In this document: piece after piece, positions 9,991-25,903 of the stretch
Numbering within the stretch: the stretch's first letter is position 1
How the letters are laid out: each line of letters starts with the position of its first letter
Source of the DNA: Capillimicrobium parvum
Lineage (GTDB): Bacteria; Actinomycetota; Thermoleophilia; Solirubrobacterales; Solirubrobacteraceae
Length of the DNA: 64,000 nt
Direction: 5' to 3'
NCBI RefSeq assembly: GCF_021172045.1
Contig: NZ_CP087164.1
Coordinates: 992,001-1,056,000 of the forward strand
Made by a program: the position numbers and the translations under genes
The notes under the pieces: model-generated
What the model was told of the DNA's origin: nothing
Database searches by the model: none
The model's input: only the letters and a program-made list of their open reading frames with translations

Positions 9991-10802
9991 CCGCGGCGGC
10001 GGACCGTGTCGGTCCAGGTCCGCGCCGGCGAGAGCAGGAGTCCCCGTCCGACCGGCGAGAGCTTCAGCGCGAAGCGGCTGCGGTCGTCGCGGTGGTCGAT
10101 GGCGACCCGCGGGATAGACAGCAGGTCCGCCGTGGCCTGGCCCTGGCGCGGGAGCGTGAACGCGTGGCGATACCCCGCATCCCGCGCGGCAGCCGCCACC
10201 CGGGGGTCCCACTCGCCGAAGGGATAGGCGAGCGAGTCGCAGCGGCCGAGCCGCTCCATGATCCGGCGGCGGGAGTCCAGCAGCTCGTCGCGCAGCTCGT
10301 CGTCGCCCAGCGCCGGGAGGTGGAGGTGCCGGTTGGTGTGGCTGCCGAACTCGATCCCGGCCTCGGCCATCGCCTCGGCCGCCGGCCAGTCGAGCGACCG
10401 CATGACCTCGGGGTGCGCGTCGCGGCGCGGCCGGATCTCGGGCCAGTCGAACGCCGCGCCCGAGTCGACCGCGGGCGGCAGCACGAACACCAGCGCCGAC
10501 CAGCCGCGCTCGCGCAGGAGGGGCGCAACCGTCGTGGCGTTGTCGGCGAACCCGTCGTCGAAGGTCAGGAACGCCCACGGCCGTTCGGGCCGGCAGCCGG
10601 CGGCGAGCTGATGCAGCTCGCGCCCGCCGACGCCGCGGTAGCCCCAGCGCGCCAGCAGGTGGAGGTGGCGCTCGAACTGCTCGACGGGGACCGACGACCA
10701 TGCCGGGCCGCGGTCGGCCACCGAGTGATAGGCGAGGAAGACCGCATCGTGTGTGCGGTTGCGCAGCGGATCGCGCACCGGTCGTGCTCCGTTTCCCGTC
10801 AT
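9957..10802 (-). CDS. Polysaccharide deacetylase (NodB/CE4 type)
   Basis: 281 residues. The NodB fold is clear: AYHSVADRG near the N-terminus, FLTFDDGFADN with the catalytic/metal Asp pair, FGSHTNRHLHLP with the metal His residues, and AYPFGEWDP. The enzyme removes N- or O-acetyl groups from a polysaccharide. No signal peptide or membrane segment is evident, so the product may act inside or leave by another route. Its ATG overlaps the stop of the upstream two-domain glycosyltransferase (ATGA), so the two are one operon. A second deacetylase lies at 14695. Confidence 0.9.
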   Translation of the reverse strand: MTGNGARPVRDPLRNRTHDAVFLAYHSVADRGPAWSSVPVEQFERHLHLLARWGYRGVGGRELHQLAAGCRPERPWAFLTFDDGFADNATTVAPLLRERGWSALVFVLPPAVDSGAAFDWPEIRPRRDAHPEVMRSLDWPAAEAMAEAGIEFGSHTNRHLHLPALGDDELRDELLDSRRRIMERLGRCDSLAYPFGEWDPRVAAAARDAGYRHAFTLPRQGQATADLLSIPRVAIDHRDDRSRFALKLSPVGRGLLLSPARTWTDTVRRRGYVAAERRPAA

Positions 10803-13060
10803 CGCACGCCGGCACTCACCGCAGGAGGTGCGGGTGCCAGCTCGCGGTAGAGATCGTCGAGGCGCTGGTAGACCTCCTCGTGGCCCAGCCGGTCGGCCCG
10901 GGCGGCGGCGGCGGCGCCCAGCCGCGTGCGCAGGGCGGCGTCGCCCGCCAGCCGCGCGAGCGCCTGGGCCAGCGCGACGGGATCGGCGGGGTCGACCAGC
11001 ACGCCGTCGACGCCGTCGCTGATGACCTCCGGGATCCCGCCCGCGCGCGTGGCGACCACGGCCTTCCCCTGCGAGAGCGCCTCGAGCAGGACGACGGGCA
11101 GCCCTTCGGAGATCGACGGCAGCACGACGATATCTGCGTCGGCGAGGGCGGCACCGGCCGCGTCGCGCTCGAGCCAGCCCAGCCACCTGACCCGGCCCCC
11201 GGTGTCGCGCAGCTCGGGCGCCGGCCCGAGGCCCGCCATGGTCACCGACACGCGAGGCGCGGCGGCCAGGAGCTCCGGCAGCGCCTCGACGAGCACGTGG
11301 CCGCCCTTGGCCGGGTTGGCGAACCCGCCGAGATACAGGACCTCGACCGCGTCGCGTCCCGGGGCCGACGCCGTGGCCGGGCGCGGCGCAGCGGCCGCGG
11401 GCCTCGGCGGCGCGGCGTTGGGCACGACGACGATGCCATGCACGCCGAGCCCGCGCTCGATCTCAAGGGCCCCGGCGCTCGACACGCTGACCACCCGGTC
11501 GGCGGCGCGGAATGCCCAGGCGAACAGCCGACGCCGCAGGGGCCCGATGCGCTCGCAGAAGGCCGCGATGTCGCCCGGCCCGGCGTGGACGTGCAGGATG
11601 ACCGGACGGCCGGTCGCGCGCGCGGCGAGCACGCAGACGCTCTTGCGGTACCAGCTGCCGCGGGTGGCCGTGTGGATGTGGACGAGGCGCCGGCCTCTCC
11701 GCAGCGACCAGCCCACCAGACGCGCCAGGCCGCCGGCGAACGTGGCCGCGCGGCGCCATGGATCGGCGTCGCCGTACGTCGCGGTGCCATAGGTGGCGAT
11801 GAAGTCGAGCTGGTGGCGCTCGGCGAGCGGTGACGAGAACAGACCTTGCATGACCGCGGGCATCCCGCCGCGGCCATGCAGGTCCGGCCCCACCTGGGCG
11901 ACCCGCAGACGGGACATGGGTGCGGGCCGCCCGGGCAGCGCTGACGCGAACACGTCGGCATAGCGCCGCACCATGGTGTCCGCGTCGTAGCCGGCGGCTC
12001 CCCGCCGGCCAAGGTCGGAGAGCTCATGCCGAAGGCGATCGTCGGCGAGGACCCGGCCGCACGCCGCGGTGAACGCGGCATCGTCCATGTGCGGCACGCA
12101 GACGCCGCCGCCCGTCGCCGCGAGCACCGTGCCGACGTCCCCGACGTCGTAGGCGACGACCGGGACGCCGAGCGCGAGCGCCTCCAGGATGGTCATCGGC
12201 ATCGTGTCGGCGCGCGACGGCAGGACCAGCAGGTCGGCGAGCGCCATCACGCCGGGCGCGTTGCCGCGGCGCCCGAGGAACACCGCCCAGTCGGCACCCA
12301 TCGCCTGCGCGCGGGTGCGCAGCTCGTCCTCGCGCGGCCCGGTGCCGACGAACACCGCGCGCACGTCGCCGAGGGCGTTTCGCAGTGCCGCGACGGTCTC
12401 GAGCGTCTGCTCCTGGTTCTTCTCGGTGCGGAAGTGGGCGACGTGGACGACCACGAGCGCCTGGTCGGGGATCCCGAGCTCCGCCCGTGAGGGCCCGCGG
12501 CCCGCCGCGCCCCGCACCTCGTCGAGCGGGATCCCGTTGGGGATGTGGACCAGCCGGTCGCGCGGCACGCCCTCGGCGGCGAGCAGCTGCTCCTGCGAGC
12601 GCGCGCAGACCACCGTCGTCGCGGTCAGCGGGCCGAGCAGGCGGTGGTGGGCGGAGACCCAGCGCCCGCGGGGCGCGCCTTGGCGCGAGACGTGGATGCG
12701 GCGGTCGGTCGCGTGGTCGGACACGACCACCGGCCGGCGGGCCAGCAACGCGGCGAGGCGCCCGTACAGGGTGGCGTCCCAGCTAGTGCAGTGCACCACG
12801 TCGGCCCGGCGCGCCAGCCGTGTGAGCTGCGGAAGCGCGAGGAGCCGGGCGCGCGGTCCGAACGCGCCGAGCTCGAGGATGCGCACGCCGGCCGACGTCA
12901 GCGCCTCGACGGGAGGCAGCACGCGTCCCAGCGCCACGACCGTCACGTCGTCGCCCTGCTGCGCCAGGCCGCGGGCCAGGTGGCGGACCTGCCATTCGGC
13001 TCCGCCGGTGCCCAGATTCGAGAGCACGAGCAGCAGTCGGCGGGGCCTCGTCATCTCCAC
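10799..13060 (-). CDS. Two-domain GT4 glycosyltransferase fusion
   Basis: 753 residues with two complete GT-B glycosyltransferase units in one frame. Unit 1 (about 1-375) has LSNLGTGGAEWQVRHLARGL and a donor-site region ADLLVLPSRADTMPMTILEALALG. Unit 2 begins near MSRLRVAQVGPDLHGRGG and has LYLGGFANPAKGGHVLVEAL and ADIVVLPSISEGLPVVLLEALSQGK. Both keep the EX7E-like donor motif, so both are probably active and could add two successive sugars. GTG 13060 has AGGA 6 bases upstream; the ATG six bases further in is an alternative start. Ordinarily these are separate genes, so the fusion is real or reflects a lost stop codon; no frameshift is visible. Confidence 0.88.
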   Translation of the reverse strand: MEMTRPRRLLLVLSNLGTGGAEWQVRHLARGLAQQGDDVTVVALGRVLPPVEALTSAGVRILELGAFGPRARLLALPQLTRLARRADVVHCTSWDATLYGRLAALLARRPVVVSDHATDRRIHVSRQGAPRGRWVSAHHRLLGPLTATTVVCARSQEQLLAAEGVPRDRLVHIPNGIPLDEVRGAAGRGPSRAELGIPDQALVVVHVAHFRTEKNQEQTLETVAALRNALGDVRAVFVGTGPREDELRTRAQAMGADWAVFLGRRGNAPGVMALADLLVLPSRADTMPMTILEALALGVPVVAYDVGDVGTVLAATGGGVCVPHMDDAAFTAACGRVLADDRLRHELSDLGRRGAAGYDADTMVRRYADVFASALPGRPAPMSRLRVAQVGPDLHGRGGMPAVMQGLFSSPLAERHQLDFIATYGTATYGDADPWRRAATFAGGLARLVGWSLRRGRRLVHIHTATRGSWYRKSVCVLAARATGRPVILHVHAGPGDIAAFCERIGPLRRRLFAWAFRAADRVVSVSSAGALEIERGLGVHGIVVVPNAAPPRPAAAAPRPATASAPGRDAVEVLYLGGFANPAKGGHVLVEALPELLAAAPRVSVTMAGLGPAPELRDTGGRVRWLGWLERDAAGAALADADIVVLPSISEGLPVVLLEALSQGKAVVATRAGGIPEVISDGVDGVLVDPADPVALAQALARLAGDAALRTRLGAAAAARADRLGHEEVYQRLDDLYRELAPAPPAVSAGVR

Positions 13061-13199
13061 GCCGCTTCCTACGCACGGTCCCGCGGTTTCATGACCCGGG
13101 TACGGCGCGGCATCCACGGCTCGTCCGAAAGCGTCAGAAGGCGGCGATCGTGCGCGTAGAGCGACATGGACGGCGGACTCCCGCCGAGATCGCTCTGCG

Positions 13200-14708
13200 A
13201 TGTCGCTCTTCAAGAACACGGCTGCGCAGTCGCTGAACCTGCTCAGCTCCTATCTGTTCAGCCTCCTGATCGCGCCGGTGATGCTCCACCAGCTGGGACT
13301 CACCATGTTCGGGGTCTGGGCGGTGACCGGCGCGATGGCCACGTACGCCGGTCTCGCGGACTTCGGCATCACGCGGTCCCTGTCGCGCTTCGTCGCCATG
13401 TACGACGTCGAGGGCGATGACCACGCGATCGCCGAGAGCATCGGTCTCGGTCTGATCGCCATCACCGTCGTGACCATCATCGCCACGGGCCTCGCGTTCG
13501 TGACGCTGCCGCTGTTCGCCGACAGCCTCGGTGTGATCAGCGAGGCAGACCTGCGCATCGTCCTGCTGAGCTCCGTCGCGGTCTTCTCGTTCACGGCATA
13601 CCGGCGGGTACTCAACTCGGTCGAGATCGGGCTGCGGCAGATGGTGCCGCCGAACGTGGCCAACCTCTTCACCAACGTGGTGAACTTCGCGTTCAGCCTG
13701 GCCGCCCTCCTGTTGTACCCCGACCTGCCGACCTACGCGGTGGCCAACGCCCTGTCGTACATGGTCGGCATCGGCGCCGCGATCGCCAGCGTCCGGCACG
13801 TGTGGGGGTCGGTCCCGCTGGCCTGGCCGTCGCGACGGCGCGCCCGCGAGATCACATCCTTCGGCGTCAAGGCCCAGCTCCACGGGCTGTCGGACCTGAT
13901 CAACCTGCAGACCGACAAGATCATCCTGGCCTTCGCGGTCGGCGTGCGCGCGGCCGCCAGCTACGAGATCGCGGCCCGCGTCGTCAGCGCGGTCCGGTCG
14001 GTGGGGCTGCTGTCGATAGCGGCGATGATCCCCACGTTCGCCGCGCACATCGCCCAGCACGGACGCGATGATCTGCGGCGCATCTACCGCCGCTACACCC
14101 GGGTGGCGGTCGGCCTCGCCTTCCCGGTGTATGCGCTCACCTGCGTCATGTCGCCGCTGCTGCTGAAGGCCTGGCTGGGTGACGTGCCGCTCCATGCGCC
14201 GGGCGTGGTGGTGCTGCTCACCATCTCGTACCTCTTCGGCACGTCGTGCGAGGTCGCCATGAACATCGCGACCAGCGACGGGCGCCCGGGCCTGGTGGCG
14301 TCGAACTCGATCGTCACGGCGGGCGCGAACGTGGCGCTGACCCTGGCGCTCGCACCGGTGTTCGGGTTCTGGGGCGTGCTCGCGGGCACGGTCCTCGCGC
14401 TGTCGCTGGGCAGCGCTGTCTTCATCGTGCGCTACAACCGGGCGTACGGCCTGTCGTGGAGCGACTACTTCGCCGCCGTCGTCCCGCCGGCCCTGCTGTC
14501 CTTCGGCGTGGCCGCGATCATCGGCGTGTGGGTGCTGCTCCTCGGATGGGGTGAGCCCCTCCGGCTCACGTCGATCTTCCTCGTCATCGGGATAACGGCG
14601 GGCTACACGCTCATCTACTGGCCGATCGCCAGCCGGCTGGGCTTCCTGCCGGCGAAGATGACGCTGCGACCGATGAGAGGAGCCCGGCTCGCGAATGAAC
14701 AGCTCTGA
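13200..14708 (+). CDS. Wzx-type polysaccharide flippase (MATE/MOP superfamily)
   Basis: 502 residues with about 12-14 membrane segments. The first helices (NTAAQSLNLLSSYLFSLLIA, then LTMFGVWAVTGAMATYAGLADFGI) are typical of the polysaccharide transport branch of the MOP superfamily, which flips undecaprenyl-linked repeat units across the membrane. It is divergent from the two-domain glycosyltransferase gene, with 139 bases between them. Its 3' end overlaps the next gene by 14 bases, so flippase, deacetylase and methyltransferase form one operon. Confidence 0.9.
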   Translation: MSLFKNTAAQSLNLLSSYLFSLLIAPVMLHQLGLTMFGVWAVTGAMATYAGLADFGITRSLSRFVAMYDVEGDDHAIAESIGLGLIAITVVTIIATGLAFVTLPLFADSLGVISEADLRIVLLSSVAVFSFTAYRRVLNSVEIGLRQMVPPNVANLFTNVVNFAFSLAALLLYPDLPTYAVANALSYMVGIGAAIASVRHVWGSVPLAWPSRRRAREITSFGVKAQLHGLSDLINLQTDKIILAFAVGVRAAASYEIAARVVSAVRSVGLLSIAAMIPTFAAHIAQHGRDDLRRIYRRYTRVAVGLAFPVYALTCVMSPLLLKAWLGDVPLHAPGVVVLLTISYLFGTSCEVAMNIATSDGRPGLVASNSIVTAGANVALTLALAPVFGFWGVLAGTVLALSLGSAVFIVRYNRAYGLSWSDYFAAVVPPALLSFGVAAIIGVWVLLLGWGEPLRLTSIFLVIGITAGYTLIYWPIASRLGFLPAKMTLRPMRGARLANEQL

Positions 14709-15504
14709 CGGCGCCGCGCCTGTCGGCCGGTCGCGGCGGCGCATCCTGATCCTCGGCTACCACTCCGTCAGCGACACCTGGCCCGCGGCGACGTCGGTCC
14801 GGCCGCGGGACCTGTTCGAGCAGCTGGCCGCGCTCGTGCGGCGCGGGTTCCGGGGCGCCACGCTCACGGAGGCGCTGACCGCCCCGCGCCATCCGCGCAC
14901 GCTGGTGGTCACCTTCGACGACGCGCACCGCTCGGTCCTCGAGCTGGGGCTGCCGATCCTTGAGCGGATGGGGCTTCCGGGCACGGTGTTCGTCCCGACG
15001 GCGTACCCGGCGTCGGGCCGCCCGCTGGACTGGGACGGCTACTCCCGCTGGCTCGGCACCGAGCACGAGCACGAGCTCGCGTGCATGGACTGGGACCAGC
15101 TGCGCCGGCTGGCGCGGCGTGGGTGGGAGATCGGCTCCCACACGCGGTCTCACCCCCGGCTGACGCATCTCGGCGACGCCGATCTGGCGTCGGAGCTGCG
15201 GGGGTCCCGGGAGGACTGCGAGGATGCCCTCGGCCGGCGCTGCGTCTCGATCGCCTACCCCTACGGTGACGTCGACGGGCGTGTGGCCGCCGCGGCCCGC
15301 GATGCGGGGTTCGCCCTCGGCGCCACCCTGCCGAGGCATGCGGCGCCGCCGCTGCCGCTGTTGTGGCCCCGGGTCGGGGTGTACCACGGGGAGGACGCCA
15401 AGGTCGTGCGCAGGCGCGCGTGGCGACGGGCGCATCCGCTGGCGGACGCCGGGATCGGGGCCGTCCTGACGGCGGCCCGAGGAATGCTCGGGCGAGGAGC
15501 TTGA
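14695..15504 (+). CDS. Polysaccharide deacetylase (NodB/CE4 type), second copy
   Basis: 269 residues. LGYHSVSDTW, LVVTFDDAHRSVLEL, IGSHTRSHPRLTHL and AYPYGDVDGRVAAAARDAG mark the CE4 fold. The first motif is FDDA rather than the common FDDG, but the metal Asp/His residues are present. It starts inside the flippase gene (14-base overlap) and is followed after 4 bases by a methyltransferase. It is clearly related to the gene at 9957 but diverged, so the pair probably acts on different residues or steps. Confidence 0.9.
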   Translation: MNSSDGAAPVGRSRRRILILGYHSVSDTWPAATSVRPRDLFEQLAALVRRGFRGATLTEALTAPRHPRTLVVTFDDAHRSVLELGLPILERMGLPGTVFVPTAYPASGRPLDWDGYSRWLGTEHEHELACMDWDQLRRLARRGWEIGSHTRSHPRLTHLGDADLASELRGSREDCEDALGRRCVSIAYPYGDVDGRVAAAARDAGFALGATLPRHAAPPLPLLWPRVGVYHGEDAKVVRRRAWRRAHPLADAGIGAVLTAARGMLGRGA

Positions 15505-15508
15505 TCGG

Positions 15509-16240
15509 ATGACGATGCACGACACGACCGAGCGCTACACCGGGCCCGAATACCGGGAGGCCAACCCCGACTGGCACGTCTCGCACTCGCCCTGGAAGGC
15601 CGATCTGGTGGTGGACGCGCTCGGCGGGTGGCGCCCGCGGTCGATCTGCGAGGTCGGCTGCGGCGCGGGGGAGATCCTGCGCATCCTGCATGACCGGCTC
15701 GAGCCGGACCGCAGCGTCGGCTTCGAGATCGCCCCGGCGGCCTACGAGCTGTGCCTCGGCCGCACGACCGCCGGACTCGAGTTCGTACTCGGCGACGCGT
15801 CCGAGACCGGCGAGCGCTTCGACCTGATGTTGCTGATGGACGTCATCGAGCATGTCGAGGACCCGATCGGCTTCCTGCGCGGGCTGCGCGCGCGAGCGGA
15901 CCGCACGATCCTCCACATCCCGCTCGATCTGTCGGTGCAGAGCGTGCTGCGCCGCGACCGGCTCATGCACGCCCGGCGCAGTGTGGGTCACCTGCACTAC
16001 TTCACGCCCGAGACAGCGGTCGCGACCATCGAGGACGCGGGCTACGCCGTGACCGCGACCGAGATCACCCGCGTGACCGTCGACCTGCCGGTGAAGTCGT
16101 TCAAGGCGCGCGTGGCGCGCCTGCCGCGTCGGGTCCTGCCGCCGGCGTTCGTGGCCCGGACGCTCGGGGGCTTCTCGCTGCTGGTGTCGGCGGTCAACGA
16201 GCCCGCCGCCGTGTTCACGTCGCGCGCGAGCTCTCGATGA
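15509..16240 (+). CDS. Class I SAM-dependent methyltransferase
   Basis: 243 residues. The SAM-binding motif I is ICEVGCGAGEILRIL (about 47-61). FDLMLLMDVIEHVEDP is the motif IV region, and LHYFTPETAVATIEDAGY is a common C-terminal element of small sugar or lipid methyltransferases in polysaccharide loci. The likely role is methylation of a sugar residue or lipid intermediate in the locus (inference). It is last in the flippase operon. Its 3' end overlaps the convergent response-regulator gene by 26 bases. Confidence 0.88.
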   Translation: MTMHDTTERYTGPEYREANPDWHVSHSPWKADLVVDALGGWRPRSICEVGCGAGEILRILHDRLEPDRSVGFEIAPAAYELCLGRTTAGLEFVLGDASETGERFDLMLLMDVIEHVEDPIGFLRGLRARADRTILHIPLDLSVQSVLRRDRLMHARRSVGHLHYFTPETAVATIEDAGYAVTATEITRVTVDLPVKSFKARVARLPRRVLPPAFVARTLGGFSLLVSAVNEPAAVFTSRASSR

Positions 16241-16925
16241 GGCGGGTCGCCACCTCGATCGCCTCCTGTCGCGTGCGAACCTCGAGCTTGCGCATCAGGT
16301 TCTTGATGTGGCTGTAGATCGTGTCCTCGGTGAGGAACAGCGCGTCCGCGATCTCGCTCGTGGTCAGGCCGGCGACGAGCAGGTCGAGGACCTCCCATTC
16401 GCGGTCGGTGAGGTTGCTCTTGACCGGCCGGATTCCGGTCCCGGCCTCCGGGAACTGACGCAGGCGCTCGATCAGCCGCATCGTCAGCGCGCGTGAGATC
16501 GCGGCCTCGCCGCGCATGAGGCCGTGCAGGGCCTGGGCGACGGCCTGCACACCGACGTCCTTGGACAGGAACCCGCGCGCGCCGGCTCGGACGGCCCGTA
16601 GCTCGACCGCCGGCTCGCAGGCCACGGCGAAGACGAGCACCCGGACCTCCGGTGCCCGCTCCACGAGGCGCCGCACGAGCTCGATGCCGTCCATGCGCGG
16701 AAGCGTCACCTCCGTGATCAGCAGCTCGGGGCGGTAGTGCGTCGCGAGCTCGAGCGCCTCGACGCCATCGGCCGCTTCGGCCGTCACGATGAACTCCCGC
16801 CGAGCCTGCAGCTCCTCGCGTACCACCCGCCGAGCCAGCGGATCGGCATCTGCGATGATCACCCGAAGCCGCTCGCCATCGGCGAGCGGGGTCGGGTCGC
16901 CGCTGTTGGTTGCCCCTCCGGCCAT
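16215..16925 (-). CDS. NarL/FixJ-family response regulator with Glu at the phosphorylation site
   Basis: 236 residues. A receiver domain (about 18-135) is followed by a LuxR-type helix-turn-helix (LTDREWEVLDLLVAGLTTSEIA, then TEDTIYSHIKNLMRKL). In the receiver the phosphoacceptor position reads LLITEVTLP, so Asp is replaced by Glu (codon GAG). One Asp of the metal pocket is also replaced (IIADADP). The conserved Lys is kept (FLSKDV). Glu there can mimic constant phosphorylation, so this may be a phosphorylation-independent DNA-binding protein. It is the first of four related receiver genes on this strand. No histidine kinase gene is in the window. Confidence 0.92.
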   Translation of the reverse strand: MAGGATNSGDPTPLADGERLRVIIADADPLARRVVREELQARREFIVTAEAADGVEALELATHYRPELLITEVTLPRMDGIELVRRLVERAPEVRVLVFAVACEPAVELRAVRAGARGFLSKDVGVQAVAQALHGLMRGEAAISRALTMRLIERLRQFPEAGTGIRPVKSNLTDREWEVLDLLVAGLTTSEIADALFLTEDTIYSHIKNLMRKLEVRTRQEAIEVATRLIESSRAT

Positions 16926-17097
16926 TGCTCTCCCGCTGTGCCTCTCGTTGCGCCTGCCCCCGCCGGAAGGTCGGCTCGGCGCACAGCTTACTCGCCGACC
17001 TCGCCCGCGTCGATTTCCTGGCGGGTTTGAAGCACGTTGTTACCCGGTGAGCGAGGATTCAGCCAGAACTGTCGGGGAGAAATCGCCTCCTCGCCCT

Positions 17098-17772
17098 TTA
17101 GGCCCGCAGGCGCCGGCAAGCATCGACGGCTTCCTCGCGGGAATGAACGCCGAACTTGAGAAACACGCTTCTCATATGGCTGCGCACCGTCTCGACCGAC
17201 ACCGCGAGCTGCTTGGCGATCGCGGCTGTGCTCTCGCCGGCGGACATCAGATCCATGACCTGCCATTCGCGCGCGGTGAGCGTGCTGCGCACCGGTCGCA
17301 GGCCGAGGCCCGACGCAGGCGTCTCGCGCACACGCCGCATGAGCGCCGCGGAGAGGCGGCGCGGTATCGGCGCCTCACCCCGCTTGACCGCGATGAGCGA
17401 CCGCGCCAGCGCGTCCATGGGCACGCCCTTGCCGAGGATCCCCACAGCACCGGCGCGAAGCCCGAGGAGCGCCTGCTCGTCGTCGCTGCCGTTCGCGAAG
17501 ACCACGACACCCACATCCGGAGCGACGCCGTGGATCCGCCGCGTGATGCTGATGAGGTCAGGTCCCGGAAGATCGGAGTCGAGCAGGATGACGTCGGGCC
17601 GCAGGCGCCGGATCAGGTCCAGGGCCTGATGAGCATTGGTCGCCTCCCCCTCCACGCGGATGCGGGAATCGCCGGTCACCGCGCGTCGCACCGCGGTGCG
17701 CACGAGGGGGTCGTCGTCGGCCACGACGACCCGCACCTGCCTCGACTGCCGGCTGTTCGGTTCGACGGACAC
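17098..17772 (-). CDS. NarL/FixJ-family response regulator
   Basis: 224 residues from GTG 17772, chosen because GGAGG lies 5 bases upstream. A GTG 21 bases earlier has no such site. The receiver keeps the normal pocket: VVADDDPLVR, phosphoacceptor Asp in VILLDSDLP, and Lys in ILGKGV. The LuxR-type output domain reads LTAREWQVMDLMSAGESTAAIA, then VETVRSHMRSVFLKFGV. It shares the linker pattern RGEAPIP, then R-[RL]-x-RPV, with the neighbour at 16215, indicating gene duplication. Of the four receiver proteins here it is the only one with both a canonical pocket and a DNA-binding domain. Confidence 0.93.
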   Translation of the reverse strand: MSVEPNSRQSRQVRVVVADDDPLVRTAVRRAVTGDSRIRVEGEATNAHQALDLIRRLRPDVILLDSDLPGPDLISITRRIHGVAPDVGVVVFANGSDDEQALLGLRAGAVGILGKGVPMDALARSLIAVKRGEAPIPRRLSAALMRRVRETPASGLGLRPVRSTLTAREWQVMDLMSAGESTAAIAKQLAVSVETVRSHMRSVFLKFGVHSREEAVDACRRLRA

Positions 17773-17941
17773 TCCGTCCTCCGGTCTCGGCACAGAAACA
17801 ACATCCCCCGCTAGTGGGCGCGAGCGACGGGCGCACGCTAACCGCCCGGCCGCGGGAAGCTACGGGGGAATCCCTGAGGCTCCGGTGGCAGGAAGCCCCG
17901 CCTGCTCGGGTGGGTTCCTCACCGCCATTCGCGGAGCATGG

Positions 17942-18409
17942 TCACGCGCTCTCCGGCGCCCGGCGCCGCAGGCCTTCGACGATGCGCATCGCCGTGGCCG
18001 GGGCGATCGCCGCCTCGCCGCGGGCGACCGCTCGGACCGCGGCCGCGAGCCCGGGCTCGTCGCGTCCCTTTACGAGGAACCCCAGCGCGCCGGTGCGCAG
18101 CGCCGCGAGCTCGAGCTCGGCTGTCGACGCAGCGGCGAAGAACAGGATGTGCACGCCGGGCGCCGTGGACCGGAGCGCCTGCGCGACGTCCAGGCCGTCG
18201 CGGCGTGTGAGCGATACATCGGTGACGAGCACGGCCGGGGCATGCCGGTGCACGAGCCGGACGAGCTCCTCGCCGTCCCCCGTGTCGGCTACGACGTCGA
18301 TCCCGCCCGCGTGCGCGAGCTGTTTCCGGATCGCCCGGCGCTCCCCGGGACTGCGGTCCGCGATCAGGAGCCGCAGGGGTGGCCCGGCGTCGACTGTCTC
18401 GGCGGACAT
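17942..18409 (-). CDS. Stand-alone receiver protein, HTH lost
   Basis: 155 residues. This is a receiver domain of the same type as the two neighbouring regulators: LLIADRSPGERR at the start, phosphoacceptor Asp in VLVTDVSLTRRDG, Lys in FLVKGRDEPG. One pocket Asp is replaced by Arg. The protein stops just after RGEAAIAPATAMRIVEGLRRR, the linker helix that in the neighbours leads to the helix-turn-helix. The output domain is therefore missing by a clean truncation, not by a frameshift I can see. It could compete for phosphate or dimerise with the full-length regulators (inference). Confidence 0.82.
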   Translation of the reverse strand: MSAETVDAGPPLRLLIADRSPGERRAIRKQLAHAGGIDVVADTGDGEELVRLVHRHAPAVLVTDVSLTRRDGLDVAQALRSTAPGVHILFFAAASTAELELAALRTGALGFLVKGRDEPGLAAAVRAVARGEAAIAPATAMRIVEGLRRRAPESA

Positions 18410-18904
18410 AGCAGGGATGGTGCGTCGTCCGCCGGGCAGGCGCGGGGGGAGAAATCTCCGCACCTCCGGAGGGATCTGCCCCGATCCGGGCGCGGGCGTC
18501 GTACCCAGTGCTGATGCGAATGCCGCCGAGCGGGTGGGGAGGCGCTCAGTGGGGAGCTTGCTCCCTGTCGGGTTGCAGGAGTTTCCCGCAAGCGGTGGAG
18601 AGGTTCGGCACCCCGGCGCTGAACCCGTCGCCCATGATGCCTCCATGCGTCTCGTCGTGGTCGCGCCGGTGTTCGGCGGCTCCCTCTCCTTCGCCACCCC
18701 GGTGGCGAAGGTGATCGCCGAACGCGGCGAACCGATCGCCACGGAGAACTGCCTGCCGGGCGGGACGCACGGGTGCGGCACGGCGGCGGCCGATGTTGGC
18801 GGGCGGACCAATCCCCGCATAACGGGACGCCCTCGATGCGCAGAGGCTCGCCGCCGTGCTCGCCCCACTGCTCGGGACGTCCGCCCTGGACGCGGGCCCG
18901 GGGC
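18410..18904. other. Gene-free stretch between two receiver genes
   Basis: About 495 bases with no convincing gene. A plus-strand open frame starting at 18644 (MRLVVVAPVFGG) looks protein-like for some 45 residues but then turns into Arg/Pro-rich noise, so it may be a gene remnant. A perfect 24-base palindrome lies inside it (18688-18711). Confidence 0.5.
18688..18711. repeat. Perfect inverted repeat, 11-base arms
   Basis: CCTTCGCCACC, two bases CC, then GGTGGCGAAGG. The arms match perfectly. No T-run follows on either strand, so it is not a typical terminator. It could be a protein-binding site upstream of the receiver gene ending at 17942, whose start is about 280 bases away. Confidence 0.6.
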
Positions 18905-19378
18905 TCAGTCTTCGTCGAACCCCTGATAGCGGCGCACGAGACTGGTCGCGACCTCCGGGGTCACGGCCGCGTCACCGTCCGCGACGCACGCGACCGCGTC
19001 ACAGAGCTCCTGGGCTGACGGCTCGCGCGTCACGACGCCGGAGGCGCCCGCGATCAGCGTCGCGAGTGCGAGGTCGGGCTCGGGGCCCACGACGACGATC
19101 GCGGCTTCGCCGGTCCCCTTCGAGATGAATCGGACGAGTTCGAGGTCGTCGCCGAGTCGCGAGGGCACGTCCACCACCACGACGGCGCTGCCGTTGTCCT
19201 CCGGCGGCCGCGCGGCGATCGCGTGCACCGCGTCGACGTCGCTGCCGTCGCAGTGGACGAGCTGAAGCCGCGCGTCGGTCTCCAGCAGAGCGATGAGCCG
19301 GTGAAGGCGGGCGGGGTCACCGGTGACCACGGCCACCGCGATCGGGCCAGAGATCCGTCCTCCGTTTCCAGCGGTCAT
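18905..19378 (-). CDS. Degenerate stand-alone receiver-like protein
   Basis: 157 residues from ATG 19378, which has a near-perfect ribosome binding site (GAGGAG, 5 bases spacing). The fold order follows a receiver: strand VAVAVVTGDPARLHRL, an Asp at the usual phosphoacceptor place in VVVVDVPSRL, then VVVVGPEPDLALATLIAGA and VVTREPSAQEL, where the usual Lys is Arg. The acidic pocket is mostly lost. It ends DGDAAVTPEVATSLVRRYQG, matching the linker helix of the neighbouring regulators, and lacks any helix-turn-helix. It is divergent from the polysaccharide lyase gene across a 494-base region. Confidence 0.72.
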   Translation of the reverse strand: MTAGNGGRISGPIAVAVVTGDPARLHRLIALLETDARLQLVHCDGSDVDAVHAIAARPPEDNGSAVVVVDVPSRLGDDLELVRFISKGTGEAAIVVVGPEPDLALATLIAGASGVVTREPSAQELCDAVACVADGDAAVTPEVATSLVRRYQGFDED

Positions 19379-19872: not shown

Positions 19873-21000
19873 TTGAAGTTCCGACGCAATTCAATGCTGC
19901 GGCGGGCGCTCGCGCTGTGCGCGTTCGCCCTCGCAGTGCCCGCCGGTGCCCAGGCCTCGGTCGTCTTCGACGGCGACCTGGACACCGGCAACCTCTCGCA
20001 GTGGGGACTGCAGCAGATGTGCTCGCCCGACCGCGCCACCGTGTACTCCGCCGCCTCGCAGCCGACCTGGCCGAAGCCGATCTCGGGCAGCCACGCGCTG
20101 CGCTTCCGCGTCCTCGACTCGGATGTGTCGCCGTGCACGCCCACGCGCAATCCCCGCGCGCAGATCGCCAACTCCGCCTCCTCCCCGGGTGCGTTCCAGC
20201 ACGGCCACGAGCGCTGGCAGCGCTTCAGCGTGTACTTCCCGGCCGGCTTCCCGAAGTTCATGGACAGCTCGAGCTCCGACCAGTGGTTCGTCTTCCAGGA
20301 GGACTACGGCGCGCCGTGGAACGGTTCGCCGCCGATCAGCTTCGGTGTCGTCAACGACCAGGTCATCGCTGCTCGCGGAGCGCAGTATGGCTACGACTGG
20401 GTGTGGAGCAAGCCGCTTCAGCGCGACCACTGGTACACGTTCATCGTCCACAAGCGGTTCGCGAAGGACAGCAGCGGTTTCGTCGAGCTTTGGCTCGACG
20501 GCGTGCAGCAGCGCTTCTCCCCCCGTCCCTACGGCCAGGCGGCGCGTGATGCCGGCGTGACCCGCCTGTCCACGCAGACGATGCACTCGGACGCAACGGG
20601 GCCGTATCAGTTCTTCCTGAACAGCTATCGCTCCAGGGGTTCGGCGTCGGGGGCGGTCGACGCGTACTACGACGGCGCGAAGGTGGGCACCACCCGCGCG
20701 GATGTCGAGGCGTCCGCACCGGCGCCCGCGCCCGCACCGGCGCCCGCGCCCGTGACTGCGCCGAGCGCCGCCTTCACGTTCGCTCCGACGGCGCCGAAGC
20801 GCGGCCAGCTTGTCCAGTTCGACGCGTCCGCGAGCAAGAACGCCGCGTCGTACTCGTGGTCGCTGGACGGCTACACCACGCTCACCGGCGTCAGGCCGAC
20901 GTTCAAGTTCCAGAACGCCGGGACGAAGAAGGTGACGCTGACCGTGACCGCTTCCGACGGAAAGAAGTCGTCGGTCGCTCGCAGCCTGGTCGTCAGCTGA
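19873..21000 (+). CDS. Secreted polysaccharide lyase (heparin lyase I-like fold) with PKD domain
   Basis: 375 residues. The signal peptide is MLRRALALCAFALAVPAGAQA, after a short basic start. The catalytic domain (about 28-270) has the jelly-roll lyase features SHALRFRVLDSD, HERWQRFSVYFPAGFP and SDQWFVFQEDY, then WYTFIVHKRF and GFVELWLDGVQQRF, as in the heparin lyase I/alginate lyase-like family. A Pro-Ala linker (PAPAPAPAPAPV) leads to a PKD domain (SAAFTFAPTAPKRGQLVQFDASAS through VARSLVV) for glycan or protein contact. Start: TTG 19873 with AGGGG 8 bases upstream; ATG 19894 would also give a good signal peptide. It probably trims or releases the polymer made by this locus (inference). Confidence 0.85.
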   Translation: MKFRRNSMLRRALALCAFALAVPAGAQASVVFDGDLDTGNLSQWGLQQMCSPDRATVYSAASQPTWPKPISGSHALRFRVLDSDVSPCTPTRNPRAQIANSASSPGAFQHGHERWQRFSVYFPAGFPKFMDSSSSDQWFVFQEDYGAPWNGSPPISFGVVNDQVIAARGAQYGYDWVWSKPLQRDHWYTFIVHKRFAKDSSGFVELWLDGVQQRFSPRPYGQAARDAGVTRLSTQTMHSDATGPYQFFLNSYRSRGSASGAVDAYYDGAKVGTTRADVEASAPAPAPAPAPAPVTAPSAAFTFAPTAPKRGQLVQFDASASKNAASYSWSLDGYTTLTGVRPTFKFQNAGTKKVTLTVTASDGKKSSVARSLVVS

Positions 21001-21050
21001 CCGGCGACCAGCGATTCCGGGCGCCGATCGCGCCCGTGTGACGGGCCCCG

Positions 21051-21081
21051 ACGGCCGTGCCGCATCCTGCGGCACGGCCGT
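21051..21081. terminator. Bidirectional hairpin terminator
   Basis: ACGGCCGTGCCGCA, loop TCC, TGCGGCACGGCCGT: a perfect 14-base stem between two convergent stop codons (21000 and 21091). TTCTGGGTTCTC follows on the plus strand. It is the clearest intrinsic terminator-like hairpin in the window. Confidence 0.8.
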
Positions 21082-21090
21082 TCTGGGTTC

Positions 21091-21786
21091 TCACCCAACT
21101 CCTCCCGCCACCGCGACGAGCGACTTGGTCAGACCGAGGAAGCGCTCGCGCCAGATCTCCGAGGCCGGGAAGTAGTGGCGCAGCTCCGTGACCGAGACCA
21201 GCTCGGTCGCCAGCACCCAGCGGACCGCCTGGTCGAGCTCGCGCACGGCGCTGTAGCCCCCGAGCGGCCAGCGGAGCGTCACCTCGGCGCGGGCGCGCAC
21301 CGGCAGGAACTGCAGGCCCGGGCACAGCCAGTGCGGCTCGACAGGGAAGTAGCGGTAGGGGGTCTGGATCCAGTGGGCGTCGCCGAGCTCGCGCACCGAG
21401 GCCGCAAAGGCGAGCCGGCGGTCGTGGCCGCCGACGTGCTCGAGCACCGAGTTCGAGTAGACGAGGTCGAAGCGCTCGCCGCGCAGCTCGGCGGGCAGCG
21501 AGCAGGCGTCGCCGACCACCGCCTTGACCGAGCCGTTGCCGTTGCCGCCGCCGTCGACGTCGCTCTGCGCGAACCGGTTGAGCAGCACCAGCTCGCGCGG
21601 CTGGACCGGCGCCAGCCTCCAGGCCCGCATGTCGCCTCCGAGATCCACGATGCGCATCTGGTCGAGCTCCGGGAACCGCCGCAGGAGCTCGTCCCAGCGA
21701 CTGCTGCGCCGGCGGGCGCCGAGCGACGAGGGCGTATACGGGTCGGCGATGGCCCGCGAGACACGCCTGCTGAGCGTCGTGGACAT
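21091..21786 (-). CDS. SAM-dependent methyltransferase domain protein
   Basis: 231 residues. MRIVDLGGDMRAWRL is the SAM-binding loop (a GxG variant with GGD). VVGDACSLP and FDLVYSNSVLEHVGG mark the acidic loop and motif IV. PYRYFPVEPHWLCPGLQFLP is common in methyltransferases of capsule loci. The substrate is unknown. It is convergent with the lyase gene across a strong terminator. The next gene on this strand (CpsB-like) lies 93 bases upstream. Confidence 0.85.
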   Translation of the reverse strand: MSTTLSRRVSRAIADPYTPSSLGARRRSSRWDELLRRFPELDQMRIVDLGGDMRAWRLAPVQPRELVLLNRFAQSDVDGGGNGNGSVKAVVGDACSLPAELRGERFDLVYSNSVLEHVGGHDRRLAFAASVRELGDAHWIQTPYRYFPVEPHWLCPGLQFLPVRARAEVTLRWPLGGYSAVRELDQAVRWVLATELVSVTELRHYFPASEIWRERFLGLTKSLVAVAGGVG

Positions 21787-21879
21787 GACGGATCGGTCCT
21801 GGGTAGGGGCGGCTGGTCGAACTTGCCGGGCTCTCGCCGTGATACGGACCGGGCCGCCGAGGTCTGACGCGTCCGCCGC

Positions 21880-22641
21880 TCAGGCCCGGCGGCGGGGCCT
21901 GGAAGCGCCTGGCCGCGCCGGCAGCGGCTCTCCGGCCAGGATCGCGAGCGGTGCGTCGAGGACCATCCAGCTCGCGACCCGGGGGTCGACGGCGCGCGCC
22001 GCGGCCACCCCCGACGACAGGTTGGGTGGGCGGAACTCCCCCGCTGAGTGCGCGTCCGAGGCGATCACATGGGCCATCCCGTGCTCCACGAGCTGGACGG
22101 CGAGCTCGTGCGATCGCGACCGGCGCCGCGTCTGGACCAGCGACCCGGCGGTCACCTGGATGAGCACGCCGTCGCGCACGAGCTCCAACAGGCGATCCGG
22201 TGCCTGCTGAAACGCGCGGTTGCGTTCGGGATGCGCGAGCAGGATCCGGAATCCGAGCGTCTGCAACCGCTCGACGGCGGCATCGAACGACGGCGCGATC
22301 GCGCCGTACGGCGTCTCCAGCAGCACGTCGGTCCCGCGCTGTCCGTAGGACGCCAGCCGCAGGTCATCTTCGTCGGCCTCCTGAACCCACAGGACGTCGA
22401 GCTCACCGCCCGCGACGACCTCCAGCGCGACGTCGGCGTCGGCGAGCGCCGCGTTGAGCTCCTGGCAGCGCGCCGCGAGCTCGGCCGCCCGCACCTCCGG
22501 ATGATCCTCGCGCAGATGCGGAGTCGCCGCGACGAGCTGGATGCCGTCGGACTCGGCGGCTCGCGCGAGATCGATGCTGCGCTGGATGTCCGGCGGCCCG
22601 TCGTCGACCCGCGGCAGGATGTGGAAGTGCATGTCGATCAC
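21880..22641 (-). CDS. CpsB/YwqE-type protein tyrosine phosphatase (PHP fold)
   Basis: 253 residues from GTG 22641, placed where family members begin (VIDMHFHILPRVDDGP). PHP metal ligands are visible: HFH at the start, ATPHLREDH, LLAHPERNRAF and ASDAHSAG. Such manganese-dependent phosphatases dephosphorylate the tyrosine tail of CpsD-type kinases and tune polymer length and output. Its target is almost certainly the divergent kinase gene starting at 22815, 173 bases away. This head-to-head layout differs from streptococcal cps operons, where cpsB-cpsC-cpsD are co-directional. The Arg-rich C-terminus is unusual. Confidence 0.9.
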   Translation of the reverse strand: MIDMHFHILPRVDDGPPDIQRSIDLARAAESDGIQLVAATPHLREDHPEVRAAELAARCQELNAALADADVALEVVAGGELDVLWVQEADEDDLRLASYGQRGTDVLLETPYGAIAPSFDAAVERLQTLGFRILLAHPERNRAFQQAPDRLLELVRDGVLIQVTAGSLVQTRRRSRSHELAVQLVEHGMAHVIASDAHSAGEFRPPNLSSGVAAARAVDPRVASWMVLDAPLAILAGEPLPARPGASRPRRRA

Positions 22642-22814
22642 CGCCGGTGCCCCTGTCCGCGCCGGACATCCCGGGCCGCCACGCAGCGCAGGGTGGCAGA
22701 CCCTGGCCTCGTCCTGCGTATAGCCACCTGACATGCGTAGGCGAGCCGCTGGGCCGCGCTCATGCGCGCGGGGCGGCTCGACGGGACACCAGCAGAACGG
22801 TCAGGGGCCAGCAC

Positions 22815-24440
22815 GTGATCAGCCCACAGCGCACCCGCGCACCCAAAGGCACTTCGAGCGATTCGATCCTCGACGAGGATCGCCTACGGCTCGCGTCTCC
22901 ACAGCCCATGGATCCGAACGACGACGACAGCTTGGTCGAGAAGCTGCTGCGCCTTCTGCGCAAGCGCTGGTTGATCGTGTTGCAGGCGATGATCGTGATC
23001 CCGCTCGCCGCGCTTCTGTTCTCGCTGACACAGGAGAAACAGTGGACCGCGACGTCCACGCTGCTGGTTCAGCCGGCCCGGCAGAACTCCGGCTCCGTCG
23101 ATCTTACGCGGCAGGCCGCGACGCAGGCCAAGCTCGTCGGGCTGCCGGTCGTCGCGGCGCGGACCGCGCAGCGTCTCGGCGACGGATGGACGCAGGCCAA
23201 GGTCGAGGCCGCCGTGAGCGTGAGCGCCTCGACCGACACGAACCTCATCAACGTCAACGCCACGACGGCGCCCCCCGAGGCGGCCCAGAAGGTCGCCAAC
23301 GCCTACGCCACGTCGTTCATCGACCTGCAGGACGCCTCGAACGCCGCCGATGTCCGGCGCAGGCTCGACGCCTACGACGCGTACTTCCGGTCGCTGCCCG
23401 CGTCCCAGCGCACCGGAGACCGGGCCGCCCGCCTGCAGCGCCAGCTCGACGCGCTGCGGATCTCCAGCACGCTCAACGGCGACAACCAGAGCCCGACGGC
23501 GGAGATGTCGCAGCCGGCGCAGCTGCCGAGCTCGCCCTCCTCGCCGAAGGTCGTGCGCAACGTGATCCTCGCGCTGCTTCTCGGCGGCGTCGTGGGGGTC
23601 TCGCTCGCCGCACTCCGCGAGCGCCTGGACCGTGACATCTCGAGCGTCGACGAGCTCGAGCGCATCTCCGGGCTGCCGATCCTGGCCCGCATCCCGCGGG
23701 CTCGTGGCCTCGACCGGCGGCTGCGTCGCAGCGGCTCGGCGGAGGTGCTGCGCTCCGGGGCGGAGGCGGAGGCGTTCCGGGCCCTGCGGGCAAGCCTGCG
23801 CTACTTCAACATCGGCGGCAACCTGCGCTCGCTGCTCGTGGTCAGCCCGGAGGCCGAGGACGGCAAGTCGACCGTCGCGGCGTGCCTGGCCACCACGCTG
23901 GCGCAGCGCGGCGACCGCGTCATCCTCGTGGAGGCCGACCTCCACAAGCACACCGGGGAGGGGCGGTCGCGCGGCGCCGGCATGTCCCCGGCGGCCGCCG
24001 TGGGGGCGGGCGACGAGCACGCCGATGGAGTCACGACGGTGCTGGCCGGCGGCGACCTCGACGACGCGCTCCTGGCCGTCCCGCTGGGCGACGGCGACGG
24101 CCCGCAACGCGAGCTGATCGTCCTGCCGAGCGGCCCGACTCCGCCGAACCCGTCCGAGCTGCTCGAGAGCGGGCGGATGCACGACCTGATGATGGAGCTC
24201 GAGCGGCGTTGCGACATCGTCGTCTACGACACGCCGGCGCTGACGGCGGTCAGCGACGCACTGGCGCTTCTCCCCGACACCGCCGGGGTGATCGTCGTCG
24301 GCCGGCTGCACCACACCAGCCGAGACACCATCCGCGAGTTGCTCAAGCAGCTGTCGCTGCTGCGCGCGCACGTGCTCGGCGTCGTCGCCAACTGCTCCGA
24401 GCTCCCCAAGCGGCGTGGCTACGACTACTACCGCACCTGA
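22815..24440 (+). CDS. Fused chain-length determinant and BY-kinase (CpsC-CpsD type)
   Basis: 541 residues from GTG 22815, which has AGGGG 7 bases upstream. Part 1 is a Wzz domain with two membrane segments (WLIVLQAMIVIPLAALLFSL at about 55-75 and VVRNVILALLLGGVVGVSLA at about 250-270). Part 2 is a tyrosine kinase of the BY type: Walker A in SPEAEDGKSTVAACL, a Walker A'-like VILVEADLHKH and Walker B in CDIVVYDTPAL. The C-terminus ends RRGYDYYRT, a tyrosine cluster for autophosphorylation. It controls chain length and polymerase activity in Wzy systems and is reset by the phosphatase at 21880. The N-terminal extension before the first membrane helix is about 50 residues. Confidence 0.92.
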   Translation: MISPQRTRAPKGTSSDSILDEDRLRLASPQPMDPNDDDSLVEKLLRLLRKRWLIVLQAMIVIPLAALLFSLTQEKQWTATSTLLVQPARQNSGSVDLTRQAATQAKLVGLPVVAARTAQRLGDGWTQAKVEAAVSVSASTDTNLINVNATTAPPEAAQKVANAYATSFIDLQDASNAADVRRRLDAYDAYFRSLPASQRTGDRAARLQRQLDALRISSTLNGDNQSPTAEMSQPAQLPSSPSSPKVVRNVILALLLGGVVGVSLAALRERLDRDISSVDELERISGLPILARIPRARGLDRRLRRSGSAEVLRSGAEAEAFRALRASLRYFNIGGNLRSLLVVSPEAEDGKSTVAACLATTLAQRGDRVILVEADLHKHTGEGRSRGAGMSPAAAVGAGDEHADGVTTVLAGGDLDDALLAVPLGDGDGPQRELIVLPSGPTPPNPSELLESGRMHDLMMELERRCDIVVYDTPALTAVSDALALLPDTAGVIVVGRLHHTSRDTIRELLKQLSLLRAHVLGVVANCSELPKRRGYDYYRT

Positions 24441-25893
24441 CGCGGGTCGGGTCCGGCGCCTGCGCCTCGGTCCGGCGGCGCTCCGGCGGCCGCTGGCGAT
24501 CGCCGCGATCGCGGTGGGCGTGGTGCTCGTCGAGGTGGTGGTGGCCCGCGGTCTCACCGGCCCGCAGTCGGTCCGGCTGCTGGCGCTGGTGGCGGCCGTC
24601 GCCGGCATGGCCCTGGCCTTCCGGTTCCCGCTCGCCGTCGCCATCGCGCTGTTGGTCATCGCGGGCAGCCTCTTCCACAGCGCCTACTTCACGTGGTCGG
24701 TCGGGCCGGTGCAGCTGCACCTCGAGGAGATCGTCCTCCTAGCGCTCGGGGTCGTGGCGGTGGTCGCCCCGAAGCGCCAGACGTGGGGCGGCGCCGCCGG
24801 CCTGGCGCTCGCCGCCTTCCTCGCCATCGCCACGTTCTGCGCATGGCTCGGCGTCCAGGACGGCCGCGTGGCGGTCGACGACGCGTTCAACTGGGCTCGC
24901 CCGTTCGCGTTCTACGGGATCTTCTGGATCGTCCTGCGCCTGTTTCCCGATGCGCGGTCGCTGCGCCGGCTGCTGATCGCGGGTCTCGTGTGCGGGGCGA
25001 TCACCGGCGTGCTGGCACTCGTGATGCAGTTCACCGGGTCGCTCACCGACGTCTTCCAGGGGTCGGGCGGCCAGCAGATCTACACGCAGGCCACCCAGGC
25101 CGGGCTCGGCGGGCTCAAGCGCATCCGGCAGCCCGGTCTTGCCTTCAGCTACATCCTGTTCTGGTGGTCCATCGTGGCGGCGCTGACCTGGCGCGGCCGG
25201 TTTCGCATGCTCATGTGGGCGCTGGTGACGGCCTCGGCGCTGAACATCGTCCTCTCGTTCAACCGCAACATGTGGGTCGGCGTCCTCGTCGGGCTCGGGC
25301 TCGTGCTCATACTCGGCGGCGTGCGGCTTCGCCACCGGCTGCTGGTCGGACTCGCCATCGGCCTGACCGGGGTGGTGCTGCTGTTCACCGCGGTGGTGAA
25401 CTCGGGCAACACGCAACGGCTCGACCCGATCGTGGAGCGCGCGGCCACGGTGGTGACGCCGCGCCAGATCGGCGAGGAGAGCTCCCTGCGTGACCGCGCC
25501 AACGAGACGGCCCAGGCGTGGCGCACGGTGAAGGCGAACCCGGTGTTCGGCGTCGGCGCGGGGGCCGACTACGGCGTCCGCTTCAACCACGAGGAGGGCA
25601 ACGGCATCTGGGTGAACACCACGCAGCGCTTCCTGCACAACCAGTGGTTGTGGCTGCTGCTCGTCGGAGGCGTTCCGGCGCTGGTCGCCTTCGCCGCGTT
25701 CCTGGGCGTCGTGCTGGCGAAGGCGTGGGGACCGGGCAGAACGGTGTCGCAGACCGCGCTCGGAGCCGGGATCGCGATGATCTGCCTGAGCGCCTTCGTA
25801 ATGCCCTACCTCGGGGTGGAGGAGTTCTGTCTGGCGATCGGCGTCGTCGCTGGCGCGATCGTGGCCTCACGCGACCTCGCGCGCCGCGCCTGA
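24415..25893 (+). CDS. O-antigen ligase/Wzy-type membrane protein, second copy
   Basis: 492 residues with about 11 membrane segments. The start GTG lies inside the kinase gene (26-base overlap), so translation is coupled. The family loop near the C-terminus reads SLRDRANETAQAWRTVKANPVFGVGAGADYG, then TTQRFLHNQWLWLLLVGGVPAL, holding the conserved Arg and His. Its direct coupling to the chain-length/kinase gene makes this the better candidate for the polymerase controlled by that kinase. The protein at 3825 may then be the ligase or serve a second polymer (inference). Confidence 0.85.
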   Translation: MATTTTAPDAGRVRRLRLGPAALRRPLAIAAIAVGVVLVEVVVARGLTGPQSVRLLALVAAVAGMALAFRFPLAVAIALLVIAGSLFHSAYFTWSVGPVQLHLEEIVLLALGVVAVVAPKRQTWGGAAGLALAAFLAIATFCAWLGVQDGRVAVDDAFNWARPFAFYGIFWIVLRLFPDARSLRRLLIAGLVCGAITGVLALVMQFTGSLTDVFQGSGGQQIYTQATQAGLGGLKRIRQPGLAFSYILFWWSIVAALTWRGRFRMLMWALVTASALNIVLSFNRNMWVGVLVGLGLVLILGGVRLRHRLLVGLAIGLTGVVLLFTAVVNSGNTQRLDPIVERAATVVTPRQIGEESSLRDRANETAQAWRTVKANPVFGVGAGADYGVRFNHEEGNGIWVNTTQRFLHNQWLWLLLVGGVPALVAFAAFLGVVLAKAWGPGRTVSQTALGAGIAMICLSAFVMPYLGVEEFCLAIGVVAGAIVASRDLARRA

Positions 25894-25903
25894 GCGAAGA
25901 ACT

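What the first reader, a model, noticed from the sequence alone, without database searches (positions are those of the whole stretch)
16215..19378. Four tandem receiver genes, two cut at the same linker helix, one with Glu in place of the phosphorylated Asp
All four share a linker of the type RGEAAI followed by a short Arg-rich helix. Two go on to LuxR-type DNA-binding domains (16215, 17098); two stop right after the helix (17942, 18905). The pocket decays along the row: canonical (17098), Asp to Glu (16215), one pocket Asp lost (17942), pocket and Lys lost (18905). No histidine kinase is nearby. They sit within the polysaccharide locus. This looks like a duplicated regulator family in which DNA-binding-less members could titrate or dimerise with the full ones.
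Basis: partly seen in the sequence, partly recalled or inferred. Interest (0 to 1): 0.7.

Follow-up and report, generated by a model that had tools for sequence, protein, structure and literature searches.

The report
Kinase-free regulator set of polysaccharide loci
Inside a soil actinobacterium's polysaccharide genes sits a row of four switch proteins that appear to have given up their usual chemical trigger; two have also lost the part that grips DNA, so they probably work by pairing with one another, a mode known from only a few bacterial systems.

Summary
Four minus-strand receiver genes lie in a polysaccharide locus; R1 and R2 end in GerE (LuxR-type) DNA-binding domains, R3 and R4 stop after the linker helix. 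No HTH remnant follows R3 or R4, and no histidine kinase lies within about 34 kb. R2 is not canonical (switch Thr/Ser is Ala), and R1 has also lost the second Mg-binding Asp. 'Decay along the row' is wrong. The four belong to one Solirubrobacterales subfamily but to separate old lineages: their grouping as one clade is rejected (AU p 0.0003). R1's Glu is invariant in same-genus relatives, and nearly all Glu members (28 of 29) lack the second acidic residue. R4 belongs to an HTH-less lineage of four genes in three genomes. A second polysaccharide locus in this genome carries five more members, one HTH-less. New: GATTTCTCCCC occurs three times in the 5.95 Mb genome, each time upstream of a family gene (R1, R3, the second-locus HTH-less gene); all non-RBS intergenic matches to the wider pattern lie upstream of family genes. 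Best reading: a phosphorylation-independent, cross-regulated NarL/FixJ network, with HTH-less pseudo-receivers as likely dimerisation modulators. Heterodimerisation is inferred, not shown.

The parts
16215..16925 (-). R1: Glu-receiver (D-A-E-A-K pocket) + GerE/LuxR HTH, close relatives in all three same-genus genomes searched
   Evidence: Pfam; pocket; Glu invariant in alignment A2; tree
17098..17772 (-). R2: receiver with complete acidic pocket and Lys but Ala at the Thr/Ser switch, + GerE HTH; GTG start at 17772 (GGAGG before it) preferred over 17793
   Evidence: nearest relative L090:1848-2612 (98/74 support)
17942..18409 (-). R3: HTH-less pseudo-receiver (D-R-D-A-K) ending after linker helix
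   Evidence: no HTH remnant downstream
18905..19378 (-). R4: HTH-less, strongly degenerate pseudo-receiver (T-G-D-G-R) with sixth helix
   Evidence: fold; lineage with L052, L051 and L084 members
17074..17084 (+). cis-element GGGGAGAAATC (GATTTCTCCCC on gene strand), 149 bp upstream of R1 start
17909..17923 (-). cis-element GGTGAGGAACCCACC upstream of R2
18446..18456 (+). cis-element GGGGAGAAATC (within near-palindrome GGAGAAATCTCC), 37 bp upstream of R3 start
7416..15504 (.). polysaccharide locus, left side: sugar transferase 7416-8951, Alg14-like/GT28 8948-9990, deacetylases 9957-10778 and 14695-15504, GT4 10799-13060, flippase 13200-14708
   Evidence: Pfam
19894..27028 (.). polysaccharide locus, right side: polysaccharide lyase 19894-21000, CpsB/CapC 21880-22641, chain-length/ParA-like 22908-24440, O-antigen ligase 24514-25893, GT4 25904-27028
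   Evidence: Pfam

Best explanation
R1-R4 belong to an orphan, phosphorylation-independent NarL/FixJ regulator network that serves the two polysaccharide loci of this genome. R1 is a Glu-receiver: without the second Mg-binding Asp it should not be phosphorylatable, and the Glu-Lys pair probably holds it in a dimer- and DNA-competent state. R2 has the most complete pocket and is the one possible phospho-input. R3 and R4 keep the receiver and the linker helix but cannot bind DNA; they most likely pair with R1/R2-type subunits and take them off DNA or change their specificity. Several family genes in both loci share a private promoter element, so output is probably set by the relative amounts of the members through auto- and cross-regulation rather than by a kinase. 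Shown: architectures, pocket losses, conservation, lineages, kinase absence nearby, shared element. Inferred: Glu mimicry, heterodimerisation, that family members bind the element, control of polysaccharide genes.
For: Glu invariant in 10 R1-type proteins; 28 of 29 Glu members lack an acidic DD2 while 28 of 36 Asp members keep it. Family members with a full D-D-D-T-K pocket exist in Solirubrobacter and another genus of the family; in one of these (L093) the regulator is immediately followed by a HisKA/HATPase_c kinase, a stand-alone receiver and a second regulator, while the window genome has no HATPase_c within 34 kb. HTH-less R4 lineage of four genes in three genomes (95/95 support; sharp score gap to all others, where the four were also the model's own rows). 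Conserved neighbour order: R2-like then R1-like in L090, R4-like then R1-like in L084. Second polysaccharide locus with five members, one HTH-less. Shared element: 3 of 3 genomic copies of GATTTCTCCCC upstream of family genes; of 12 matches to GGKGAGRAAYC, 7 are inside genes, 1 is a ribosome-binding site, and the other 4 lie upstream of family genes; held-out same-genus family promoters score higher than controls (Mann-Whitney p 0.0003). Precedent: BldM/WhiI heterodimer of atypical NarL/FixJ regulators (PMC4125116).
Against: No interaction, binding or expression data. Glu at this position often fails to mimic phosphorylation (PMC4395418; PMC12632262). R3 has no HTH-less relative found elsewhere. 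R4's helix is acidic, unlike R1's. The element was first spotted by eye in the R1 and R3 promoters (only the third site and the held-out genes are independent), is missing upstream of R4 and several relatives, and was not found strongly at window polysaccharide genes. Not every family gene sits in a polysaccharide locus (L084, L086). The coupled loss of DD2 and Asp rests on very few independent events (4 and 2 changes on the tree).
Confidence: 0.45

Rival explanations
1. R3 and R4 act as stand-alone adaptor pseudo-receivers for something other than R1/R2 (a distant kinase, a biosynthetic or chain-length protein), as FrzS-type pseudo-receivers do; they share history and promoter element with the regulators but not a dimer interface.
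For: R4 tail charge differs from R1; pseudo-receivers can act through protein-protein contacts (PMC12632262); canonical stand-alone receivers also accompany family regulators in other genera.
Against: R4 and R3 keep the NarL-family linker helix and are linked to, and partly co-marked with, the HTH members; best folds are dimerising NarL-family receivers.
Confidence: 0.25
2. R3 and/or R4 are relics: HTH loss and pocket decay without remaining function.
For: R3 is on a long branch with no HTH-less relative found; pockets degenerate.
Against: Both reading frames are intact with coding-type composition; R4's HTH-less lineage persists in three genomes with a conserved core; R3 carries the shared promoter element 37 bp upstream.
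Confidence: 0.15
3. Ordinary orphan two-component regulators: R2 (and perhaps others) is phosphorylated by a distant kinase or acetyl phosphate, and R1's Glu is neutral.
For: R2 keeps DD1, DD2, Asp and Lys; the genome holds 55 HATPase_c matches; a relative with a full pocket sits beside a kinase.
Against: R2 lacks the switch Thr/Ser; R1, R3 and R4 lack Mg ligands; R1's Glu is invariant, not drifting.
Confidence: 0.13
4. Sequencing or assembly frameshifts cut R3 and R4.
For: Both end at the same structural place.
Against: No HTH-like sequence in any frame downstream; independent genomes show the same cut for R4's lineage; single-contig genome.
Confidence: 0.02

Closest known systems
BldM/WhiI, Streptomyces (atypical NarL/FixJ regulators, heterodimer; PMC4125116)
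   Same: Orphan NarL/FixJ regulators of an actinobacterium, degenerate pocket in one member (WhiI lacks Lys and one of the paired Asp), pairing as the proposed logic, no kinase gene next door.
   Different: Both BldM and WhiI keep DNA-binding domains; R3/R4 do not. R1 has Glu; BldM has Asp. Setting is polysaccharide loci, with several paralogues sharing a promoter element.
RcsB with auxiliary RcsA (capsule control; as described in PMC4125116)
   Same: NarL-family regulator of exopolysaccharide, modified by a non-phosphorylatable partner; R4's model matches RcsB receivers.
   Different: RcsA has an HTH and no typical receiver, the reverse of R3/R4; RcsB has a phosphorelay.
Aspartate-less receivers and pseudo-receivers (PMC4395418, PMC12632262), e.g. 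ChxR with natural Glu
   Same: Glu in place of Asp, frequent loss of DD2 (acidic in only 29% of ALRs), retained Lys.
   Different: Here a NarL/FixJ clade with fixed Glu, plus HTH-less companions, tied to polysaccharide loci.

Membership tests
NarL/FixJ response regulator | receiver plus GerE/LuxR HTH | tested here: met
   R1 and R2 met; R3 and R4 lack GerE, so they are not full members, only receiver relatives
Aspartate-less receiver (ALR) | phosphorylatable Asp replaced | tested here: met
   R1 only (Glu); R2, R3, R4 keep Asp and are not ALRs
Pseudo-receiver (lacks key catalytic residues) | one or more of DD1, DD2, D, T/S, K missing | tested here: met
   R1 (DD2, D, T), R3 (DD2, T), R4 (DD1, DD2, T, K); R2 only T/S missing, borderline
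BldM/WhiI-type heterodimer pair | functional heterodimer between two atypical regulators | not testable with these tools
   no complex prediction or binding assay available
BldM/WhiI-type heterodimer pair | orphan: no kinase gene adjacent | tested here: met
   nearest HATPase_c about 34 kb away
VpsT-type c-di-GMP receptor regulator | W[FLM][TS]R motif in the sixth receiver helix (motif from own knowledge) | tested here: not met
   no Trp in that helix of R1-R4 (sequences)
Canonical two-component response regulator | full pocket and cognate kinase | tested here: not met
   no member of the row has all five residues; no nearby kinase

The most novel reading that the evidence does not exclude
A self-contained transcriptional circuit that has dropped phosphorylation: Glu-locked DNA-binding receivers and DNA-binding-less pseudo-receivers, expressed from promoters with one private element in two polysaccharide loci, set output by competition between homo- and heterodimers, the HTH-less members being dedicated receiver-type antagonists that close a feedback loop.
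Probability: 0.3. Interest if true: 0.75.

Novelty: new variant of a known kind. Interest (0 to 1): 0.52.

Why it matters
How bacterial pseudo-receivers are switched on and off is described as a mystery in a 2025 review (PMC12632262). This family offers a natural series: relatives with full pockets (one beside a kinase), Glu-receivers without a kinase, and HTH-less companions, plus a candidate binding element for a direct test.

Tried and rejected
Frameshift or pseudogene remnants of an HTH after R3/R4: none. Rfam hit in the region: only a sub-threshold sX7 match, treated as noise. An R4-like receiver fused to GGDEF in L087:3892-4728: not supported (hhalign probability 6%). The motif GGKGAGRAAMYC was mis-registered and gave little excess over its reversed control (7 against 3); corrected to GGKGAGRAAYC. 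GAGGAACCCRCC: 8 of 10 genomic sites are inside genes and treated as chance; the two intergenic ones lie upstream of family genes. Phylogenetically independent test of Glu with DD2 loss: too few events. Single origin of HTH loss for R3 plus R4 lineage: not rejected (p 0.35), not shown. A literature search for Solirubrobacter regulators of exopolysaccharide found nothing relevant.

Full report
Setting. The window is C1:992001-1056000 of a single-contig 5.95 Mb genome. The genes lie among a sugar transferase, glycosyltransferases, flippase, deacetylases, polysaccharide lyase, CpsB/CapC and O-antigen ligases.

The four genes. All four ORFs are open, minus strand, and have coding-type GC by codon position, whereas the 492 bp between R4 and R3 does not. 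Pfam gives Response_reg + GerE to R1 and R2, Response_reg alone to R3, and no receiver hit to R4. R4 folds as (beta-alpha)5 plus a sixth helix and its best solved matches are LiaR, RcsB, DesR and VraR, so it is a NarL-family receiver with its linker helix and nothing after it. No HTH-like sequence follows R3 or R4 in six frames. Pocket residues (DD1, DD2, D, T/S, K) are D-A-E-A-K, D-D-D-A-K, D-R-D-A-K and T-G-D-G-R.

Not a decaying local array. A receiver tree of 55 sequences puts all four in one subfamily of 43 rows (87/90), drawn almost entirely from Solirubrobacterales genomes, but in different lineages. R1 sits in a supported group with members from G001 and G003, with a G002 member next to it. 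R2 sits with L090:1848-2612 (98/74). R4 sits with L052 (97/86) inside a set of four HTH-less receivers (95/95). R3 is loosely placed. Forcing R1-R4 together is rejected (p 0.0003) while a single origin of the HTH-less state for R3 plus the R4 lineage is not (p 0.35). The R4-lineage rows have long branches, so that grouping carries some risk. Gene order is partly conserved: R2-like then R1-like in L090, R4-like then R1-like in L084.

The Glu state. Glu at the phospho-site is invariant in ten R1-type proteins. Across the subfamily 28 of 29 Glu proteins have lost the acidic DD2, while 28 of 36 Asp proteins keep it; the loss is concentrated in few events, so it is descriptive. Members from Solirubrobacter and from another genus have the full D-D-D-T-K pocket, and in G032 the row reads regulator, HisKA/HATPase_c kinase, stand-alone receiver, regulator. 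Members at E up to 1e-55 occur in 37 of 146 family genomes. The window genome has no HATPase_c within about 34 kb of the row. A path from kinase-coupled to kinase-free regulators is the simplest reading, though the Solirubrobacter members also lack an adjacent kinase.

A second locus and a shared element. The nearest paralogues in the genome are at 4.315-4.323 Mb, again among polysaccharide genes: four full regulators and one HTH-less receiver. The promoters of R1 and R3 share GATTTCTCCCC, noticed by eye. A genome-wide search finds it three times, and the third copy lies 131 bp before the HTH-less gene of the second locus. Flanks of the three copies are unalike, so it is not a simple duplication. 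The wider pattern GGKGAGRAAYC has 12 genomic matches against 8 for its reversed control: seven inside genes, one a ribosome-binding site, and four intergenic upstream of family genes. The related form GAGGAACCCRCC has ten genomic sites, eight inside genes and two intergenic, both upstream of family genes, and also occurs upstream of the R1- and R2-like genes of G001. With a matrix from eight sites, held-out same-genus family promoters score above controls (p 0.0003; 4 of 14 reach 11.5 bits against 6% of controls). The excess is in position more than in number. Binding by family members is inference.

Mechanism. By analogy with BldM/WhiI (PMC4125116) and general properties of pseudo-receivers (PMC12632262; PMC4395418), R1 is proposed to be active without phosphate, R2 a partner with the most complete pocket, and R3/R4 receiver-only subunits that pair with them and reduce or redirect DNA binding. 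The shared element would give feedback: HTH-less members are made from promoters of the same type as the regulators. None of the pairing or binding steps has been shown here.

Standing. As a kind this is a variant of orphan atypical NarL/FixJ regulators. What is unusual is the combination: a fixed Glu clade, an HTH-less pseudo-receiver lineage of its own kin, and a private promoter element across two polysaccharide loci.

Noticed in passing
L051:7165-15050 (genome C1 about 4.315-4.323 Mb): Second cluster of five family members in another polysaccharide locus, including an HTH-less one (14604-15050) and one with Ser at the phospho-site (8147-8800).
   Followed up: partly
L093:6698-9228: Compact row in another genus: full-pocket regulator, HisKA/HATPase_c kinase of 227 aa, stand-alone receiver, second regulator; possible full-pocket counterpart of the family.
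   Followed up: partly
window 18413-18904: 492 bp between R4 and R3 without coding-type composition; longer than the other gaps in the row, role unknown.
   Followed up: partly
window 16215-16240: 3' ends of R1 (minus) and the methyltransferase gene 15509-16240 (plus) overlap by 26 bp, convergent.
   Followed up: no
window 5629-7161: Weak protein-kinase domain match in a gene at the edge of the polysaccharide locus; a possible non-His phospho-input.
   Followed up: no
L087:700-7288: Same-genus row of five full-length family regulators interleaved with a sugar transferase gene and a GGDEF protein.
   Followed up: partly
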